Virus record (IMG/VR): IMGVR_UViG_3300042938_001749
Span: 1 to 27,897 of that record
DNA length: 27,897 nt
From: a virus
Reading direction: 5' to 3' (one strand)
The translations under genes and the position numbers were made by a program. The notes beneath the pieces were generated by a model. The model was not told the DNA's origin and ran no database searches. It was given only the letters and a program-made list of their open reading frames with translations. The first letter of the stretch is position 1, and every line of letters starts with the position of its first letter. Below are positions 7,044 to 19,587 of the stretch, piece after piece.

Positions 7044-8477
7044 GTGCAAGAAAAAGTTAAAAAAATAGACAGAAGTAGACCTTGTAGGATTTGCGGTGAA
7101 ATATTTACCCCGTTAAGTCAGGACGGGATATCTAAAAGTAAATATACGAGCTGTTCCGACAAATGTAGGAATATTTCCAGAAAAGACAAAAGAAGATCTG
7201 CTAAATATTCGGAATTCCAGTTAGAAAAAGTTAAAGAATTAAAGAAGAGACATTTTACAAATAAAGAAATAGTTAGAATAAGTCAGGTTAATCTTAATAC
7301 TGTAAAGAAAATTATATCGGAAAATAATCTTGAATTAGATAAGAAAATAGCTAATAAAAACGCATATAAAGGGAAGGTAGATAGCGATCCCGACTGTATG
7401 AAAAAAATGAGAGATGGAAGGGTATTTTGTAAAACAAATGTATTTAACAATAAAATCGATGAAATTAAAAATATTTTACAAAATCCAGATAATAAGTATA
7501 GCATACCCCATATATCTAAGAAAAATGGTTTAAACGAAGGTTCTGTAAGAAGAGGTCTTCATTTAAGAGGTTTAAGTGAATTGATTGGTAAACATTCTTC
7601 GTCTGGAGAGGATGGTATATATGATTTTATAAAAGAACTATTACCTGAAGTGGAGGTGGTAAGAAATACAAGATCTTTACTAGGAGGAAAAGAGATTGAT
7701 ATCTACATACCTTCTATGAAATTAGCTATAGAGTATTGTGGTTTATATTGGCATACGGAAGACAGTCCTCAACCAAGACTTAGAACTTACCATTACGATA
7801 AAATGAAAAAGTGCGAAAGTCTAGGTATTAGACTTATAACAATTTTCGAGGATGAGTGGACAGATAGAGAAAAACAAGTTAAAAATTTCCTTAAATCTGT
7901 TTTAAACGTTATAGATCGTAGAATTTACGCTAGAGATTGTCAGCTATCCGAAGTTGACAAAGAAACTGCTAAAATTTTTCTGGAAGATAATCATATTCAA
8001 GGCGATACTTCTTTTAAGGTAGCTTTTGGACTTTATTTTAAAGAACAATTAGTTGGATTAATTACAGCTAATAAACACCATAGACAAGGTCACGACACTG
8101 AAAGCGTATTAAACAGACTCGTTTTCTCTAGCGGAGTACAGATAGTTGGAGGAGCTTCTAAGTTGTTAAAATACTTATTGAATTATTCTAGAGACAACGG
8201 ATATCAAAAACTTATTTCTTGGTCGGATAGTCGTTGGAGTCAAGGTAATGTTTACGAAAAATTAGGTTTTAAATTAGAAGATGAGATAGATCCCGACTAT
8301 AGTTATTATGTAGGTGGAAATAAGAGAAAATCTAAACAATCCTGCCAAAAGAAAAACTTAATAGAATTAGGGGCTGTAGGAAATATAGATAATACCGAAA
8401 CCGAACTAGCTAAATCTTTAGGATATGGTAAAATCTATGACTGCGGTAAAAAACGTTGGACCCTCTCCTTAATCTAA
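7044..8477 (+). CDS. Vsr/EDxHD-like homing endonuclease with GNAT-like C-terminal domain
   Basis: A 477-residue free-standing endonuclease. Residues 14-41 form a zinc finger (Cys14, Cys17, Cys37, Cys41). Residues 60-190 contain helix-turn-helix-like repeats ('FTNKEIVRISQVNLNTVKKI', 'ISKKNGLNEGSVRRGL'), typical DNA-binding modules. Residues about 200-275 are a Vsr-like nuclease core: 'LGGKEIDIYIPS' with Glu217 and Asp219, 'LAIEYCGLYWHTED', 'KKCESLGIRLITIFEDEW', as in the EDxHD homing endonuclease family. The last 190 residues include an acetyltransferase-like domain ('YFKEQLVGLITANKH', 'SWSDSRWSQGNVYEKLGFK') often fused to this nuclease in phages. The start is GTG with a weak AGG upstream. Its AGA-rich codon use differs from the CGT-rich capsid gene, which fits a mobile gene inserted behind the capsid terminator. 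Confidence 0.85.
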   Translation: MQEKVKKIDRSRPCRICGEIFTPLSQDGISKSKYTSCSDKCRNISRKDKRRSAKYSEFQLEKVKELKKRHFTNKEIVRISQVNLNTVKKIISENNLELDKKIANKNAYKGKVDSDPDCMKKMRDGRVFCKTNVFNNKIDEIKNILQNPDNKYSIPHISKKNGLNEGSVRRGLHLRGLSELIGKHSSSGEDGIYDFIKELLPEVEVVRNTRSLLGGKEIDIYIPSMKLAIEYCGLYWHTEDSPQPRLRTYHYDKMKKCESLGIRLITIFEDEWTDREKQVKNFLKSVLNVIDRRIYARDCQLSEVDKETAKIFLEDNHIQGDTSFKVAFGLYFKEQLVGLITANKHHRQGHDTESVLNRLVFSSGVQIVGGASKLLKYLLNYSRDNGYQKLISWSDSRWSQGNVYEKLGFKLEDEIDPDYSYYVGGNKRKSKQSCQKKNLIELGAVGNIDNTETELAKSLGYGKIYDCGKKRWTLSLI

Positions 8478-9071: not shown

Positions 9072-9348
9072 AAAATACCTACCTTCTAAAGAAGGAAGTT
9101 GGTTAGATAAAAGTAGTCATCCTCATAAGGAAGATGAATTTCCTATTTGTTATCATATAGACGCAATGAAGAGATGTATAGATTCCGATTCTAGTTGGGA
9201 TTTTGAAAGTGCGGAAGATGATGAAATTGGAAAAAATAAAGAAATTAACCAAATTCAAAATACTAGGCGCTGCACAGTATTAAAAAACAATAATGTCAAA
9301 AGTATTAAATCGCACAATAAACGTCAAAGAAATAGAGGTAAAAAATGA
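9064..9348 (+). CDS. Small basic-tailed hypothetical protein, 94 aa
   Basis: A 94-residue hydrophilic protein with scattered Cys and His ('PICYHIDAMKRCID', then 'RRCTV') and a very basic C-terminus ('KSHNKRQRNRGKK') that could bind nucleic acid. No family recognised. It overlaps the gene before it by 8 bases and the AAA+ gene after it by 4 (ATGA), so it is translationally coupled on both sides. The tight coupling suggests a partner of the ATPase, but the sequence does not show what it does. Confidence 0.6.
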   Translation: MSRKYLPSKEGSWLDKSSHPHKEDEFPICYHIDAMKRCIDSDSSWDFESAEDDEIGKNKEINQIQNTRRCTVLKNNNVKSIKSHNKRQRNRGKK

Positions 9349-10331
9349 GCGATTCTAAATTTGTCGTTAAAAAAGTTACCAGCATAGAGCATCTTGCTAA
9401 CGGACAGGAATTATACATACCTGAATCAGATATTACTTTTCAAACTAAAGATTATATCATCCAATTAGATCTACATGATGAGAAAAAAGAAAAAGAAAAA
9501 TATACTATTGAATCTGGCGTATTTATATTTGAAACTACAAACTCAGGTATGATCTTATCTCCTATCGAACTGAGAAGAAATAAAATGTTAGAAACTATAG
9601 GTGTAACCGACGATATTTTAAAAGAGGGTGATAAGTTTTTCAATAGACTTGATGTCTATGAAAGAAGATCTATAATACCTAAAAGAGCGATATTACTTAT
9701 GTCAGCCCCCGGCATTGGAAAGTCTGCTGCAATTAACCTAACATGTCATAAATATAGAGAGAAAGACAGTAAAACATGTATTATCGTATGGAATACATCT
9801 GGTATTAAATCTAAAGACGTTCTTGATTTTCTAATGTCTGATTCGGAGTTTAAAGACGTAACTAAACTAATATTAGTAATGGAAGATATCGGCGGCGGAT
9901 CTGTAGATGAATACGACGGTCCTAAAGGCGTAGACGCCAGTATGCTTAACCTACTAGATGGAGTAGGAAATCCTTTTCAAAATATTCCTACGTTTATTAT
10001 AGCTACAACAAACCATCCAGAACAAGTGGCTGAAGCATTGATTGATAGACCGGGTCGTTTTGACAAATGTCTTGAGCTTAAGTCACCTAATGAAGATGAA
10101 GCTATTAGACTTTATGAATTCTTTTTAGACGGTGTTCTTGACGAAGGCACTTTTGAAGCGGCTAAGATAGCTGCTAAAAATAAGTTTAGTATTGCTCATA
10201 TTAGTGAATCTATTACTAGAGCTGAATTGGACGATACTACAATATTAGAAGCAGTTAATTCACTAGTAGAACATAAAAAGAAATTTAAGAAGGCTTTTAG
10301 TAAAATCAAAGGGATGGGATTAAATGACTAA
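9345..10331 (+). CDS. AAA+ ATPase
   Basis: A 328-residue protein with a C-terminal AAA+ module after an N-terminal domain of about 100 residues. Walker A is 'APGIGKS' at 121-127 (Lys126), Walker B is 'LILVMEDIG' with Glu180-Asp181, and the second region of homology contains 'DRPGRFD' at 234-240 with candidate arginine fingers Arg235 and Arg238; 'FIIATTNHPE' before it is the sensor 1 segment. This pattern fits the classical AAA clade (FtsH, BCS1, proteasome-type), which act as hexamers to remodel or unfold proteins. No protease domain is attached. It sits directly upstream of a zinc-ribbon protein and the GroEL-like chaperonin, so a part in protein remodelling or head assembly is plausible but inferred. 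Confidence 0.85.
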   Translation: MSDSKFVVKKVTSIEHLANGQELYIPESDITFQTKDYIIQLDLHDEKKEKEKYTIESGVFIFETTNSGMILSPIELRRNKMLETIGVTDDILKEGDKFFNRLDVYERRSIIPKRAILLMSAPGIGKSAAINLTCHKYREKDSKTCIIVWNTSGIKSKDVLDFLMSDSEFKDVTKLILVMEDIGGGSVDEYDGPKGVDASMLNLLDGVGNPFQNIPTFIIATTNHPEQVAEALIDRPGRFDKCLELKSPNEDEAIRLYEFFLDGVLDEGTFEAAKIAAKNKFSIAHISESITRAELDDTTILEAVNSLVEHKKKFKKAFSKIKGMGLND

Positions 10332-10524: not shown

Positions 10525-10535
10525 TCACCTCTTTA

Positions 10536-10544
10536 TGGTATTAT
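10536..10544 (+). promoter_or_regulatory. Extended -10 promoter upstream of the chaperonin gene
   Basis: TGG followed by TATTAT (10539-10544), in a very AT-rich stretch. No clear -35 at the right distance (a TTGAGC at 10513 is 20 bp away). The leader would be about 25 nt and carries AAAGGA at 10566-10571, so unlike the leaderless genes this message has a ribosome binding site. Confidence 0.5.
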
Positions 10545-10575
10545 ATATTAATACAATATTATTGTAAAGGATAAA

Positions 10576-12342
10576 ATGGCACGTAAAGTTAAATCACAAG
10601 TTAAAATCTTCACCAGCGACCTTAACTTCTTAGAAAAAAAGATAGTTAAGACAATGGATAGGATATCTGGTATTGTAGGAGCTTCTTTAGGTCCAAACGG
10701 TCGAAATATCTTGATCGAAAGCGAACTACCTGAAATTCCTAATAAAAACACTAAAGACGGTGTTTCTATTTTTAGAGCTTTAGGTGCTAACGATCCATAT
10801 GAGCATATTATCATCGAACAAACTCGCGATGCTGCAATTAGAACTGTTAATGAAGCTGGAGACGGTACGACTACCGCTACTGTAATTTCAGCGGCTTTAA
10901 TTAAAAATCTTTTTAATTTTTGTGGTGACAACCGTAAATACTCTCCACAAAGAGTTACACGTATTATTAATAAGTTAGTGAAAGAGAAGATTATCCCTGA
11001 CCTGAATGATTCATCTATTCGGGTCAAAAATATTAAAGATAGACATCTACTTGAGAAAGTGGCTACTATTTCTGTAAACGGTGATACTGACATGGCTAAA
11101 TCAGTCATGGAAGCTTTTGAGCTTACGGGATTCTCTTCAGCTTCTCACGTTACTATTCAAGAACTATCTGGTCCGAGTGGAGCTTATGATGTTAAGCTTA
11201 TTGAAGGTTTTCCTATCAATAAAGGATATGAAGAATCTATCGGTAAGTTTCACCCTGCTTTTATTAATGATCAAGCCAATCAAAGATGTGAACTAGAAAA
11301 ACCTCTTTTTATTCTATTTGATGGGAATATTACAGACGTTCTCCAAATTGGAGATATTTTACAGTCTATCGGTGAAAGATACGTCTCAGGTGAGATGGAT
11401 TTTAAAAACGTTGTTATTTTAGCTCACTATTTTTCAGATCCAGTGTTAACTTGGCTTGCTTTTAACTTTCCAAATCCAAACACTATTAACGTAGTTCCAC
11501 TAGTAACTCCTATGGACGCTATCGCCAATGCTCAGCTTCACTTCCTTATTGACGTTTCAGCGTTTACGGGAGCTAAGATTTTCGATATGCACAATCCATT
11601 AACAGAAGCTACTCCAGATGATTTCGGAAAAGAAGTAGAAAAGATTTCTATTTATAGATATCGCACCACTATTGTTGGTAATCCTGATGAGTTAAACATA
11701 GAATCTAGAGCTGATGAAATTCGTAAGCAAATGGCTCAATCAGAATCTAAGCTAGAGAAGATGATTCTAGAAGAAAGAGTAGGTAAATTAACTAGCGGTA
11801 TTGCCCAGCTTCGTATTTACGGATCTTCTAACGGAGAGCTTAAAGAGAAAGCGGATAGAGCTGAAGACGCTGTTTGTGCTGTAAGGGCTGCGATTAATCA
11901 TGGTTGTTTGCCGGGTGGTTGCAGGGCACTTATTGATCAAGTAGTTAAACTCAATTCCGATCAAGATCCTATTATTCAAAAAGTAGTTATCCCATCTCTA
12001 ATGGCTCCATTCTTTAAATTGTTAGATAATGCTGGTTATAATGAAGAAGAAGTTCAAGAAATTCTAACGAAACTATTTAAAAATAAAGATCTAGTTTTTA
12101 ACGTAGCTACGGCTGAGTTTGGTAAGATTAAAGACATGGGCGTATACGACGCTACATTGGCTGTAACTCAAGCTCTTATTAACGCTTGCAGTATTGCTTC
12201 TGTAATGGGTACTCTAGGTGGTATTATTTGTACTCCACGAGACGAAGCTCTCGAAAGACAAGAGTTTTTAGACGCTCAGAATTTTGATAAGAGTTTAGAA
12301 AGTGCTGAATCATTTACTAATGAAGCGAATAACAGACCTTAA
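10576..12342 (+). CDS. GroEL-like group I chaperonin
   Basis: A 588-residue divergent chaperonin subunit, longer than host GroEL (about 548). The equatorial ATP site is intact: 'GASLGPNGRN' near 35, 'TKDGVS' with Asp61 (GroEL Asp52), 'AGDGTTTATV' with Asp96 (Asp87) and 'AEDAVCAVRAA' with Asp431 (Asp398). The apical part is recognisable ('PLFILFDGNITDVLQI', 'NVVILAHYF') but diverged. 'ERVGKLTSGIAQLRIYG' and 'GVYDATLAVTQALINA' are classic. The C-terminal Gly-Gly-Met tail is absent; it ends in Asn-Asn-Arg-Pro. Pseudomonas phages EL and OBP encode such chaperonins, and the EL protein works without GroES. Its place just before TerL suggests it folds virion proteins. A possible GroES-like partner lies at 22851-23147. 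Confidence 0.93.
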   Translation: MARKVKSQVKIFTSDLNFLEKKIVKTMDRISGIVGASLGPNGRNILIESELPEIPNKNTKDGVSIFRALGANDPYEHIIIEQTRDAAIRTVNEAGDGTTTATVISAALIKNLFNFCGDNRKYSPQRVTRIINKLVKEKIIPDLNDSSIRVKNIKDRHLLEKVATISVNGDTDMAKSVMEAFELTGFSSASHVTIQELSGPSGAYDVKLIEGFPINKGYEESIGKFHPAFINDQANQRCELEKPLFILFDGNITDVLQIGDILQSIGERYVSGEMDFKNVVILAHYFSDPVLTWLAFNFPNPNTINVVPLVTPMDAIANAQLHFLIDVSAFTGAKIFDMHNPLTEATPDDFGKEVEKISIYRYRTTIVGNPDELNIESRADEIRKQMAQSESKLEKMILEERVGKLTSGIAQLRIYGSSNGELKEKADRAEDAVCAVRAAINHGCLPGGCRALIDQVVKLNSDQDPIIQKVVIPSLMAPFFKLLDNAGYNEEEVQEILTKLFKNKDLVFNVATAEFGKIKDMGVYDATLAVTQALINACSIASVMGTLGGIICTPRDEALERQEFLDAQNFDKSLESAESFTNEANNRP

Positions 12343-16993: not shown

Positions 16994-17575
16994 ATGTCAA
17001 ACGTTGACTACAAGACCAAATACAAAGAAATGAAAGCTAAGATGTTGGAGTCGGTTGACGTATCGTACCGACTAGGTTATGAGCAAGGATTTAAAGAAGC
17101 TACTCAAGAAGCTCAAATGGCTCAAATGCAACAACAACAGCAAGAAGCTGCAGCTATGCAACAGGCTGCTATGGGACAAGATCCTAACGCTCAGCAAGAC
17201 CCTAATGCTATGGGTGCAGAAGGTGGAATGCCACCAGAGGCTGGCGGAGAGCCTATGGGTGGACAAATGCCTCCAGAAGATATGGGACAAGAAGGTGAGC
17301 CAGAACAAGGTGGAGAGCTTGATCAGTACCTAGCTGAACTTGAGAATATGGTTTCGAAAGGTGAAAAACCTTCTGTCATCGATCTTAGAAACAAGGTTAC
17401 TGAAATCGCTACTCTTCGTAAATCTCAGAAAGAAAGAATGAAGTCCAATCGTCAACAGGTAGTTTCAGCTCAAAAATCTATCGTAGATAACCTAATTAAA
17501 AAATGGGGATCTAAGACTGAAGAAACCTCTGAAGATATTGAAAAACTCATTAGAGAAAAAGGTATCGATTTCTAA
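16994..17575 (+). CDS. Q/M/G/P-rich low-complexity protein next to portal
   Basis: A 193-residue protein. Residues 1-35 are helical, 36-110 are a low-complexity stretch of Gln, Met, Ala, Pro and Gly with imperfect short repeats ('QDPNAQQDPNAMG', 'MPPEAGGEPMGGQMPPEDMG'), and 111-193 are again helical and charged. It is probably flexible. Lying between portal and the MuF-like gene, it may be a portal- or head-associated internal protein. AGGAGA is placed 6 bases before the ATG. It overlaps the next ATG by one base. No family recognised. Confidence 0.7.
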   Translation: MSNVDYKTKYKEMKAKMLESVDVSYRLGYEQGFKEATQEAQMAQMQQQQQEAAAMQQAAMGQDPNAQQDPNAMGAEGGMPPEAGGEPMGGQMPPEDMGQEGEPEQGGELDQYLAELENMVSKGEKPSVIDLRNKVTEIATLRKSQKERMKSNRQQVVSAQKSIVDNLIKKWGSKTEETSEDIEKLIREKGIDF

Positions 17576-18381
17576 TGAAAGGTCTCTCTTTAAGAATTAT
17601 TGAGGAAATAGAGAAAACCATCGGAACGCAATTCGATGAGTTTGCTCTTAGATTCTTAGGTATTATACCTAAGCTTAGTAGATCTAAAAAGATAGTTTTC
17701 TCTTCAGCTAGAACTAGTTTAACATCTCTTTTTCTTCAAGCTCTTGGCGATAGAAAACCAGATAAGAAAGAAGAGGAAGTTCTTAAGATATTGGTTAAAA
17801 CATCTAACTCGTATTTAGACGCTCTTAAACATAAAACTCAAGCGAACATATCTCAAAAAGTTGTAGCCTATAGTCAAGATCGAACTAATAAGAAAAAATC
17901 AATCAGTTTTAAGACAATTGGAAATATTGTTCAGCAAGAAATGGACAAGTCTACCAATCATCTAAAAATGATTGTAAACGCTGAAACTAACAAATGTATT
18001 AACACAGGTACTGCTTTACAAATTGATAAAGTAGCTGCAAGTAATGGAGATGACGATCCGACTGTTTTCTTTATAATAGTTTCCGATGATAGAACTGGAC
18101 CCTACGAATACATCTTACATACGCTACCTGACAGAGTAACTCCTCGTCTTTGGAAGCTATCTGAAATTCAAACAGGCTACTATAAGAATGGTGATCAATA
18201 TCCATCCATATCTGGACTACACGTTAACTGCCGTTGTAAACTCACATACTTAGCTAAAGGTATGGGTTTTAATAAAGAAGGTAAGACAGGGTGGAAAGGC
18301 ATGGGCTATGATGAGCTTAAAGTTCAACGCGAACAATACGGACTTCCAGACGTTCCTCAAAAAATAAGTAGAAAAAAATAA
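17575..18381 (+). CDS. MuF-like minor head protein (SPP1 gp7 family)
   Basis: A 268-residue protein. The C-terminal part holds the MuF/gp7 signature: 'DDRTGPYEYILHTLPDRVTPRLW' followed by 'YPSISGLHVNCRCKLTYL' with His216, Cys219 and Cys221, the family's 'HPNCRC' motif. The N-terminal 150 residues are helical and basic. Family members bind portal and are carried in the head in low copy number, with some ejected with DNA. The portal-to-minor-head order agrees. It starts on the last base of the preceding stop. No toxin domain is fused. Confidence 0.82.
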   Translation: MKGLSLRIIEEIEKTIGTQFDEFALRFLGIIPKLSRSKKIVFSSARTSLTSLFLQALGDRKPDKKEEEVLKILVKTSNSYLDALKHKTQANISQKVVAYSQDRTNKKKSISFKTIGNIVQQEMDKSTNHLKMIVNAETNKCINTGTALQIDKVAASNGDDDPTVFFIIVSDDRTGPYEYILHTLPDRVTPRLWKLSEIQTGYYKNGDQYPSISGLHVNCRCKLTYLAKGMGFNKEGKTGWKGMGYDELKVQREQYGLPDVPQKISRKK

Positions 18382-18387
18382 GTTTAG

Positions 18388-18396
18388 TGGTATAAT
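18388..18396 (+). promoter_or_regulatory. Extended -10 promoter for the tRNA-like gene
   Basis: TGG plus a perfect TATAAT (18391-18396), 18 bases before the first base of the tRNA-like gene. No good -35 element is visible. Confidence 0.55.
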
Positions 18397-18414: not shown

Positions 18415-18515
18415 GGCGTAGTAGCTCAGTGGTCTAGAGTCCAGACGTGATCAAGTCTCCGTAACACTACGGAACTCAGAGCAGAGGTGACATTGGTTCG
18501 AATCCAATCTACGCC
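18415..18515 (+). tRNA. tRNA-like gene with abnormal central region; anticodon unclear
   Basis: The 7-bp acceptor stem is perfect (GGCGTAG at 18415-18421 with CTACGCC at 18509-18515). The D arm is canonical (GCTC 18424-18427, GAGT 18437-18440, loop with GG). The T arm is canonical (ATTGG/CCAAT around TTCGAAT, 18492-18508). Between D and T arms lie 51 bases, about 13 more than in tRNA-Ser or tRNA-Leu. The only anticodon-like stem is AGAC/GTCT with an 8-base loop GTGATCAA (18443-18458), in which U33 and A37 could flank GAUC. Next comes a hairpin CCGTA-ACAC-TACGG (18459-18472). No CCA end is encoded. It could be a 4-base decoder, a processed precursor, a degenerate tRNA or a tRNA mimic. Confidence 0.65.
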
Positions 18516-18527
18516 CTATTTTTTCTC

Positions 18528-18555
18528 TTGCAATTTGTATTATTTCTGATATAAT
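18528..18555 (+). promoter_or_regulatory. Promoter giving a leaderless mRNA for the 18562 helicase
   Basis: TTGCAA at 18528-18533, a 16-bp spacer ending in TGA, and TATAAT at 18550-18555. The ATG begins exactly 7 bases after the -10 element, the expected +1. There is no Shine-Dalgarno. Confidence 0.75.
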
Positions 18556-18561
18556 CCCTTC

Positions 18562-19587
18562 ATGGTTGACTACTCGTATCAAAACACCGCCGCCGATAAA
18601 ATCCTAGAGATGGCTCTATCTGAGCGCTATATTGCTACAATCTTAGCCGCAGCCCCAAGTTCGGGTAAGTCAACCATAATTATAAACATTCTTAATAAAC
18701 TCTTCTCTATTGATCCTAATTATAGAGCTGTAATCTTTACCCACAATCTAAATAATCTTAAAGACCAAATGCTTGAAGGATTTTCTGAAGGTTATGTAAA
18801 TCCAAACTTTACATATGGATCTATCGGCGAAAACGTACAAGTTCAAGTCGGAGTTGTAGCTTCAGGCTCTAAAGTGTTTGGAAGCGTCGATGTCGTAGTT
18901 TTTGACGAAGCTCATCAATACTACTTAGAGAATATGGCTGAATCTGTACTCTCTACACTTAAACCTAAATACGTAATTGGAATGACAGGTACGCCTAGTT
19001 ATTTCAACAGCTTCAATTCATCTAACGTACATAAAAAATTCGGTGTACATTATATATCAGCAGAAGAACTGGTAGATCTTGGTGTTTTCAGCACTGTTTT
19101 GGTAGACGTAGTTAATGGTGACGACTTAGAGTCTAGACTTAACAATTCACTTAAAAAAGCTGTTTCTCACGGAATGGACCTTTCTAAAATAATTGTAGCA
19201 GCTAAAGATCAGATGGAAGCTAACATGATCGGCTATTTACTTAGCAAGCAAGGTCGTAAGGTGGCTGTTTCTACATCGTCTGTAGACCCTAAAAATGAAC
19301 GTCTTGGTGGTTACAAACAAGGTCGCTACGATACTCTAGTTATCGTTCTTAAAGGTGTGTTGGGCTTCTCAGACGTTAACACGACTGGTATGATCGACCT
19401 TAGAACTTCTTCGGATATCGACTGCAGGAGTCAGATCTTTGCTCGCGTACTAAGAAAACATCCTAAAGATATTAAGAAATTCTATATTTCAGCAGTAGTT
19501 AAGAAGAACCACAATAAAGAAGTTAGAATGCTACAATCGGTAATTGGACTTATGCAGCGTAAAAACTTTATCAGTTATATAAAATAA
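18562..19587 (+). CDS. SF2 helicase (DEAH-box)
   Basis: A 341-residue superfamily 2 helicase, compact for the group. Walker A 'APSSGKST' is at 31-38 (Lys36), DEAH at 115-118, motif III 'MTGTPS' at 141-146 and a motif VI-like 'SQIFARVLRKHP' near 290-300 with Arg295 and Arg298 as candidate arginine fingers. The first motif lies only 30 residues from the N-terminus, so there is almost no accessory domain. It should use ATP to move on or remodel nucleic acid; whether it acts in replication, recombination or RNA metabolism cannot be told. The leader is predicted absent (see the promoter at 18528-18555). A second SF2 helicase follows at 20310. Confidence 0.88.
   Translation: MVDYSYQNTAADKILEMALSERYIATILAAAPSSGKSTIIINILNKLFSIDPNYRAVIFTHNLNNLKDQMLEGFSEGYVNPNFTYGSIGENVQVQVGVVASGSKVFGSVDVVVFDEAHQYYLENMAESVLSTLKPKYVIGMTGTPSYFNSFNSSNVHKKFGVHYISAEELVDLGVFSTVLVDVVNGDDLESRLNNSLKKAVSHGMDLSKIIVAAKDQMEANMIGYLLSKQGRKVAVSTSSVDPKNERLGGYKQGRYDTLVIVLKGVLGFSDVNTTGMIDLRTSSDIDCRSQIFARVLRKHPKDIKKFYISAVVKKNHNKEVRMLQSVIGLMQRKNFISYIK

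What the first reader, a model, noticed from the sequence alone, without database searches (positions are those of the whole stretch)
18415..18515. tRNA gene with perfect ends and an abnormal 51-base centre
Acceptor, D and T arms are near textbook but the middle is too long even for a type II tRNA. The only anticodon-like stem has 8 loop bases, GTGATCAA, where U33 and A37 could flank a 4-base anticodon GAUC. An extra 5-bp hairpin and the pairing of 18437-18440 with 18474-18477 suggest a rearranged or inserted segment. Options are a frameshift-decoding tRNA, a tRNA mimic or a dying tRNA. It has its own extended -10 promoter.
Basis: seen in the sequence. Interest (0 to 1): 0.62.

Follow-up and report, generated by a model that had tools for sequence, protein, structure and literature searches.

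The report
Phage tRNA gene with abnormal middle
An uncultivated bacterial virus carries a transfer-RNA gene whose outer arms are flawless but whose middle is about twice the normal length; it belongs to a phage-specific trend of oddly built tRNA genes, some of which look as if they carry tiny introns.

Summary
Window 18415-18516 (+) has a perfect tRNA shell: 7-bp acceptor stem, D and T arms, and all 17 invariant positions checked. It surrounds a 51-nt centre where a class I tRNA has about 23. Rfam scores it as tRNA (41.6 bits; cut-off 29), ARAGORN misses it, and no standard anticodon arm is resolved. The hairpin AGAC-GUGAUCAA-GUCU sits in exact anticodon-arm register (chance 0.003). The body is most like tRNA-Ile(GAU), with one extra loop base. 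The rest is an enlarged variable region with one 5-bp hairpin; the centre as a whole folds no better than shuffles.

Comparison changes the picture. The same pattern gave no genuine hit in 398 proteobacterial genomes. Many become perfect tRNAs if one short insert is removed. One phage-only subfamily (21 genes) shares a covarying hairpin and a CNGCAA motif, like small introns. The window gene is not in that subfamily.

Best reading: an Ile(GAU)-derived, tRNA-shelled phage RNA, probably an anti-defence tRNA variant. Rivals: a dying, an interrupted or a frameshift tRNA.

The parts
18369..18396 (+). Promoter-like site TAGAAA-16-TATAAT with an extended -10 (TGG before TATAAT at 18391-18396)
   Evidence: 10 of 12 consensus matches, TG before the second hexamer; 3 such sites in the region against 0.7 expected in shuffles. 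Overlaps the end of the upstream ORF.
18415..18516 (+). tRNA-like gene, including discriminator base C73 at 18516; no encoded CCA
   Evidence: Rfam RF00005 41.6 bits; invariant positions
18415..18421 (+). Acceptor stem, 5' strand GGCGTAG
   Evidence: 7/7 pairs with 18509-18515
18424..18440 (+). D arm GCTC-AGTGGTCTA-GAGT with G18 G19
   Evidence: 4 pairs, one of them G.U
18442..18458 (+). Anticodon-arm position: C27 plus hairpin AGAC-GUGAUCAA-GUCU (8-nt loop, U33, GAU then an extra C); 27-43 is a C.C mismatch
   Evidence: In register, P = 0.003; GAU aligned with tRNA-Ile(GAU)
18459..18472 (+). Second hairpin CCGTA-ACAC-TACGG, start of the enlarged variable region
   Evidence: Pair probabilities 0.88-0.99 for the five pairs
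18473..18491 (+). Rest of the variable region AACTCAGAGCAGAGGTGAC, ending in C48
   Evidence: Sequence; no significant structure
18492..18508 (+). T arm ATTGG-TTCGAAT-CCAAT
   Evidence: 5/5 pairs, canonical loop
18509..18515 (+). Acceptor stem, 3' strand CTACGCC
18519..18524 (+). T run behind the gene, possible transcript end
   Evidence: Sequence; not scored as a terminator by the scan

Best explanation
This is a phage tRNA variant descended from a tRNA-Ile(GAU)-like gene. The parts read by RNase P, the CCA-adding enzyme and the tRNA-folding contacts (acceptor stem, D arm, T arm) are intact. The anticodon loop has gained a base and the variable region has grown from about 5 to about 32 nt. 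It is probably transcribed from its own promoter, trimmed like a tRNA, and kept as a stable RNA. The most likely use is anti-defence: a tRNA-shaped RNA whose altered anticodon and variable loops either resist host tRNA-cutting nucleases or occupy them as a decoy, rather than supplying codons. Shown: the shell, the in-register hairpin, the Ile(GAU) likeness and the phage-specific trend. Inferred: transcription, maturation and the anti-defence role.
For: Flawless shell while the decoding part is abnormal. In-register hairpin, P = 0.003, and best mean similarity to Ile-GAU among 611 tRNAs. Own promoter-like site. Long-centred tRNA genes recur in phages (about 85 in one truncated scan) with no genuine hit in 398 bacterial genomes. 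Jumbo-phage genes L243 and L263 show the same plan (4-bp stem with compensatory changes, 8-nt loop, long extra arm) with a conserved GGUGCACC. Published work seen as abstracts: phage tRNAs evade tRNA-targeting defences (PMC10264068, PMC11555353), and Septu cuts a tRNA variable loop (PMC13096335).
Against: No expression data. No diverged relative with a conserved centre; the only homologous copy is identical. The centre folds no better than shuffles. C73 and the extra loop base are unlike a chargeable tRNA-Ile (general knowledge of Ile identity). No defence system or nuclease target is linked to this phage.
Confidence: 0.36

Rival explanations
1. Dying tRNA: a tRNA-Ile(GAU) gene recently hit by an insertion in the anticodon/variable region and on its way out.
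For: The syntenic slot is empty or holds other genes in most relatives, so the gene is dispensable. No constraint on the centre is visible. Discriminator C73 and lack of CCA. L005 has another abnormal tRNA in the same slot.
Against: Shell flawless at every pair and invariant base tested. Identical copy in another metagenome, although the flanks are identical too. The same kind of gene recurs in many unrelated phages with intact shells. No normal orthologue found at the site.
Confidence: 0.25
2. Interrupted tRNA: a 27-nt insert (18459-18485, hairpin plus AACUCAGAGCAGA) sits in the 3' strand of the anticodon stem and is removed after transcription, leaving CAGAC-GUGAUCAA-GUCUG with variable loop GUGAC.
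For: Excision gives five Watson-Crick pairs, U33 and a 5-nt variable loop; chance about 1%. Many other long-centred phage tRNAs become canonical by removing one insert (46 of 141 against 1.75 expected), and a phage-only insert family with covarying structure exists. Introns in phage tRNAs are reported for Lak phages.
Against: The loop is still 8 nt after excision; with a 7-nt loop there is no solution. Most of the 1% reflects hp1, which the best explanation shares; excision adds only the 27-43 pair. CNGCAA is absent and the insert site differs from that family.
Confidence: 0.16
3. Frameshift-decoding tRNA: the extra base 3' of the anticodon lets it read GAUC or GAUU as four bases and shift the ribosome +1.
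For: 8-nt loop with U33 and an extra base 3' of GAU, as in laboratory +1 suppressors (general knowledge).
Against: No convincing target: among + strand genes only two have a GAUY in an open +1 overlap. One, at the portal stop (16978), only arises because GAT is followed by a T-starting stop, and the gene spacing differs in relatives. The enlarged variable region is not explained.
Confidence: 0.08
4. Class II-like decoding tRNA: an Ile-type tRNA that works as it stands, with a long variable arm.
For: Other phage tRNAs of class I isotypes carry long variable arms with canonical anticodon arms, such as L162, L223 and L224 (UAU) and L131 (GUU).
Against: Loop of 8, C27.C43 mismatch, discriminator C73, and a 19-nt tail beyond the hairpin.
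Confidence: 0.09

Closest known systems
tRNA-Ile(GAU)
   Same: D arm, T arm, hairpin register and GAU position
   Different: One extra loop base, variable region of about 32 nt instead of 5, C73, not detected by ARAGORN
Introns in Lak megaphage tRNAs (Devoto et al. 2019, PMC6784885)
   Same: Phage tRNA genes longer than normal because of a central insert
   Different: Here excision does not give a canonical arm; the Lak intron sequences are in a supplement I could not read
Phage tRNA genes annotated Undet, Pseudo or Leu-joined (Synechococcus phage B23, Aeromonas phages Ahp1 and PX29)
   Same: tRNA shell with a long centre
   Different: B23 and Ahp1 carry a 38-40 nt CNGCAA insert in the 5' strand of the anticodon stem; the window does not
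Allo-tRNAs and irregular tRNAs (Mukai et al. 2017, via PMC7609411)
   Same: Environmental tRNA-like genes with extra stems that were not usable in E. coli translation
   Different: Allo-tRNAs have 8/4 or 9/3 acceptor/T domains; this gene is 7/5
Phage T4 species 1 RNA (rnaC)
   Same: Phage stable RNA longer than a tRNA, with a tRNA-type T arm (CCGGG-TTCGAAT-CCCGG)
   Different: 139 nt; no class I D arm and no clean 7-bp acceptor seen here

Membership tests
Canonical tRNA (RF00005) | Acceptor, D and T arms with invariant bases, score above the family cut-off | tested here: met
   41.6 bits against 29; 17 of 17 positions
Canonical tRNA (RF00005) | 5-bp anticodon stem with 7-nt loop and U33 | tested here: not met
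   4 Watson-Crick pairs, 8-nt loop, U33 present
Class II tRNA | Standard anticodon arm followed by one variable arm of about 10-24 nt | tested here: not met
   8-nt loop; variable region about 32-33 nt with a 19-nt tail
Phage CNGCAA interrupted tRNA family (defined here) | Insert in the 5' strand of the anticodon stem whose removal gives a canonical arm | tested here: not met
   No solution with a 7-nt loop
Phage CNGCAA interrupted tRNA family (defined here) | Hairpin followed by CNGCAA | tested here: not met
   Hairpin present but the motif is absent (best 6-mer GAGCAG, two mismatches; sequence)
Lak phage tRNA introns | Same intron sequence or position | not testable with these tools
   Intron sequences are in supplements that could not be opened
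+1 frameshift suppressor tRNA | Extra base in the anticodon loop | tested here: met
   GUGAUCAA, 8 nt
+1 frameshift suppressor tRNA | Cognate shift site in a phage gene | tested here: inconclusive
   Two weak candidates at gene ends, none conserved
Allo-tRNA | 8/4 or 9/3 acceptor/T domain | tested here: not met
   7/5; U8 and U65 cannot pair
tRNA pseudogene | Decayed shell, or a normal orthologue at the site | tested here: not met
   Shell flawless; no normal orthologue in the syntenic slot

The most novel reading that the evidence does not exclude
The gene is one of a broad, phage-specific class of interrupted or expanded tRNA genes, some of which carry a previously uncharacterised family of ~40-nt introns removed by an unknown route. 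Bacteriophages would then have a tRNA splicing or tRNA remodelling system absent from their hosts.
Probability: 0.22. Interest if true: 0.85.

Novelty: new variant of a known kind. Interest (0 to 1): 0.5.

Why it matters
Annotation programs skip these genes or call them 'Undet' or 'Pseudo', yet phages keep the tRNA shell intact while varying the centre, and the bacterial genomes tested do not show them. That makes two questions directly testable: do phages use tRNA-shaped RNAs for something other than decoding (for example against tRNA-cutting defences), and do they splice short introns from tRNAs in bacteria, where no splicing pathway for such small introns is known to me. Isolates carrying such genes exist (Synechococcus phage B23, Aeromonas phages PX29 and Ahp1), so the test needs only RNA from infected cultures.

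Tried and rejected
The alternative rod fold pairing the D arm with the 3' part of the centre is the minimum-energy structure, but it is no better than shuffled centres, so it was not used. A His reading (GUG anticodon with C73) fails by inspection: no G-1, C at 33, no pairing stem. A search with the excised form returned only generic tRNA matches in phages. The Bacillus phage G hit is protein-coding in the record. The single genome hit for the intron pattern has no tRNA shell. The jumbo GGUGCACC form has no match among isolates. Pair-by-pair structure tests on the window gene were impossible because the only close relative is identical there. The MIR6154 match at 2210-2274 is far below threshold and was ignored. 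A covariance model of the CNGCAA family was not built, because it would match the window's tRNA shell in any case and so decide nothing.

Full report
WHAT IS THERE. The window is an IMG/VR phage contig with TerL, portal, major capsid, two helicases and a GroEL-like gene. Its TerL is closest to Myxococcus phage Mx1 (30% identity). Between an ORF of unknown function (17575-18381) and a helicase (18562-19587) lies the gene at 18415-18516. Rfam calls it a tRNA at 41.6 bits against a cut-off of 29; ARAGORN does not. All arms except the anticodon arm are intact, and all 17 invariant positions checked are right. The gene has a promoter-like site with an extended -10 and a T run behind it; the terminator scan did not score the T run.

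THE CENTRE. Fifty-one nucleotides separate the D stem and the T stem. The first hairpin starts exactly where an anticodon arm should. It has four Watson-Crick pairs, an 8-nt loop and U33; shuffled centres do this in 0.3% of cases. Compared with 611 tRNAs from the fetched loci, the 5' half and the whole gene both score highest on average with Ile-GAU. By best single match the 5' half is closer to one Met-CAT tRNA, so the isotype call rests on the averages. A Burkholderia tRNA-Ile(GAU) lines up GAU with GAU and leaves one extra C; that search used the form with the 27 nt removed. The second hairpin and 19 further bases make an enlarged variable region. As a whole the centre folds no better than shuffles, so I claim no structure beyond the two hairpins.

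RELATIVES AT THE SITE. A 97.4% identical contig from another metagenome has the same gene base for base, but about 1.3 kb around it is identical too. Diverged relatives keep the gene order, but their slot is empty or holds other genes. L005 has a tRNA-Gly(UCC)-like gene there with abnormal D and T loops that Rfam does not recognise. So no normal orthologue shows this copy to be a broken one, and no diverged copy supports conservation.

THE WIDER PATTERN. It gave about 85 genes with 6-7 acceptor pairs and 4-5 T-stem pairs. A few of these are tandem or overlapping tRNAs rather than single long genes. The same pattern in 398 Pseudomonadota genomes gave one match, which on inspection has no tRNA arms. 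Removing a single insert restores a perfect canonical arm in 46 of 141 long-centred genes, against 1.75 expected by shuffling. Nineteen of those 46 are simply long variable arms; the others place the insert in the 5' strand of the anticodon stem or in the loop.

THE CNGCAA FAMILY. A dedicated scan gave 21 genes with full shells and inserts of 38-55 nt. After excision the anticodon stem is restored, U33 is present in 20 of 21 and a purine at 37 in 21 of 21, with 13 different anticodons. The scan pattern itself fixed part of the stem (AACG and GCCGT) and the GCAA of the motif, but not the loop or the hairpin. The insert holds a 7-bp hairpin in which all seven pairs show compensatory changes: 94% of cells paired, with 0 of 500 shuffles reaching the observed covariation score. 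It is followed by CNGCAA. Genes found without this pattern (L149, L194, L199, L210) carry the same hairpin-AGCAA/TGCAA layout with other stems. A search of 84,980 genomes with a tighter pattern gave one hit without a tRNA shell. Isolates carry the same genes: Synechococcus phage B23 ('tRNA-Undet'), Aeromonas phage Ahp1 ('tRNA-Pseudo') and an apparent relative in PX29 (tRNA-Leu, joined); an Enterococcus phage EfV12-phi1 stretch is unannotated. Introns in phage tRNAs were reported in Lak megaphages and called enigmatic. I found no description of this hairpin-CNGCAA family in the open-access papers searched, but paywalled literature and supplements were not available.

IS THE WINDOW GENE A MEMBER? 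No, not of that family: the motif is absent and the only possible cut is in the other strand. Excising 27 nt (18459-18485) gives five Watson-Crick pairs but still an 8-nt loop. The gain over a plain long variable region is one base pair, so I do not press it. Its nearest architectural parallels are the jumbo-phage genes L243 and L263, with a 4-bp stem carrying paired changes, an 8-nt loop CCGAAAGA and a long arm with GGUGCACC; those lack U33, which the window has.

HOW IT MOST LIKELY WORKS. The intact shell suggests selection on tRNA-body recognition rather than on decoding. Phages are known to use tRNAs against tRNA-targeting defences (PMC10264068, PMC11555353), and Septu cuts a tRNA variable loop (PMC13096335); these were seen as abstracts only. 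I therefore favour an anti-defence tRNA variant, decoy or cleavage-resistant, with modest confidence. Decay is the main rival, followed by an interrupted tRNA. The frameshift reading has an 8-nt loop in its favour but no conserved target. Ile codons are common in the window (ATT 264, ATC 121, ATA 111 of 6638), but without a known host codon compensation could not be tested.

Noticed in passing
L164:5452-5564, L137:10274-10386 and 10535-10648, L126:884-998, L278-L350 set; isolates L269 and L271: Phage tRNA genes with a 38-55 nt insert in the 5' strand of the anticodon stem: covarying 7-bp hairpin then CNGCAA. Removal gives perfect tRNAs of 13 anticodons; none found in 84,980 bacterial and archaeal genomes. 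They look like a family of tiny introns.
   Followed up: partly
L149, L194, L199, L210: Same hairpin-AGCAA/TGCAA insert with other anticodon-stem sequences, several copies per phage, cut after position 27-28.
   Followed up: partly
L133:2796, L171:5860, L190; L150, L169, L201: Two more recurrent central inserts in phage tRNAs: a 14-15 nt GCATTTGCGATT type in the anticodon loop, and a CCCGGG-CCCGYAAGGG type.
   Followed up: no
L243, L263, L265 (records G024, G022, G021): Conserved tRNA-like genes in large phages with a non-standard anticodon loop and a long arm containing GGUGCACC; no match among isolate phages.
   Followed up: partly
L005:11384-11459: tRNA-Gly(UCC)-like gene in the same intergenic slot as the window gene, with good acceptor, anticodon arm and CCA, but a D loop without GG and no normal T arm; Rfam does not see it.
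   Followed up: partly
L272 (Enterococcus phage EfV12-phi1), L270 (Aeromonas phage PX29): Unannotated or mis-annotated long-centred tRNA genes in cultured phages.
   Followed up: partly
window 18528-18562: The helicase gene has its -10 box 6 nt before the ATG, suggesting a leaderless mRNA; the same spacing is seen in relatives L005, L013, L017 and L018.
   Followed up: no
window 10576-12342: Cpn60/GroEL-like chaperonin gene in the phage, next to an AAA ATPase gene at 9345-10331.
   Followed up: no
window 7044-8477: ORF just downstream of the capsid gene with weak Mom/GNAT similarity in its C-terminal part; possibly an inserted selfish or modification gene.
   Followed up: no
L118:9321-9415: Another long tRNA-like centre contains CTGACGAG, reminiscent of a hammerhead core, in a strongly folded centre (z about -4); may be coincidence.
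   Followed up: no
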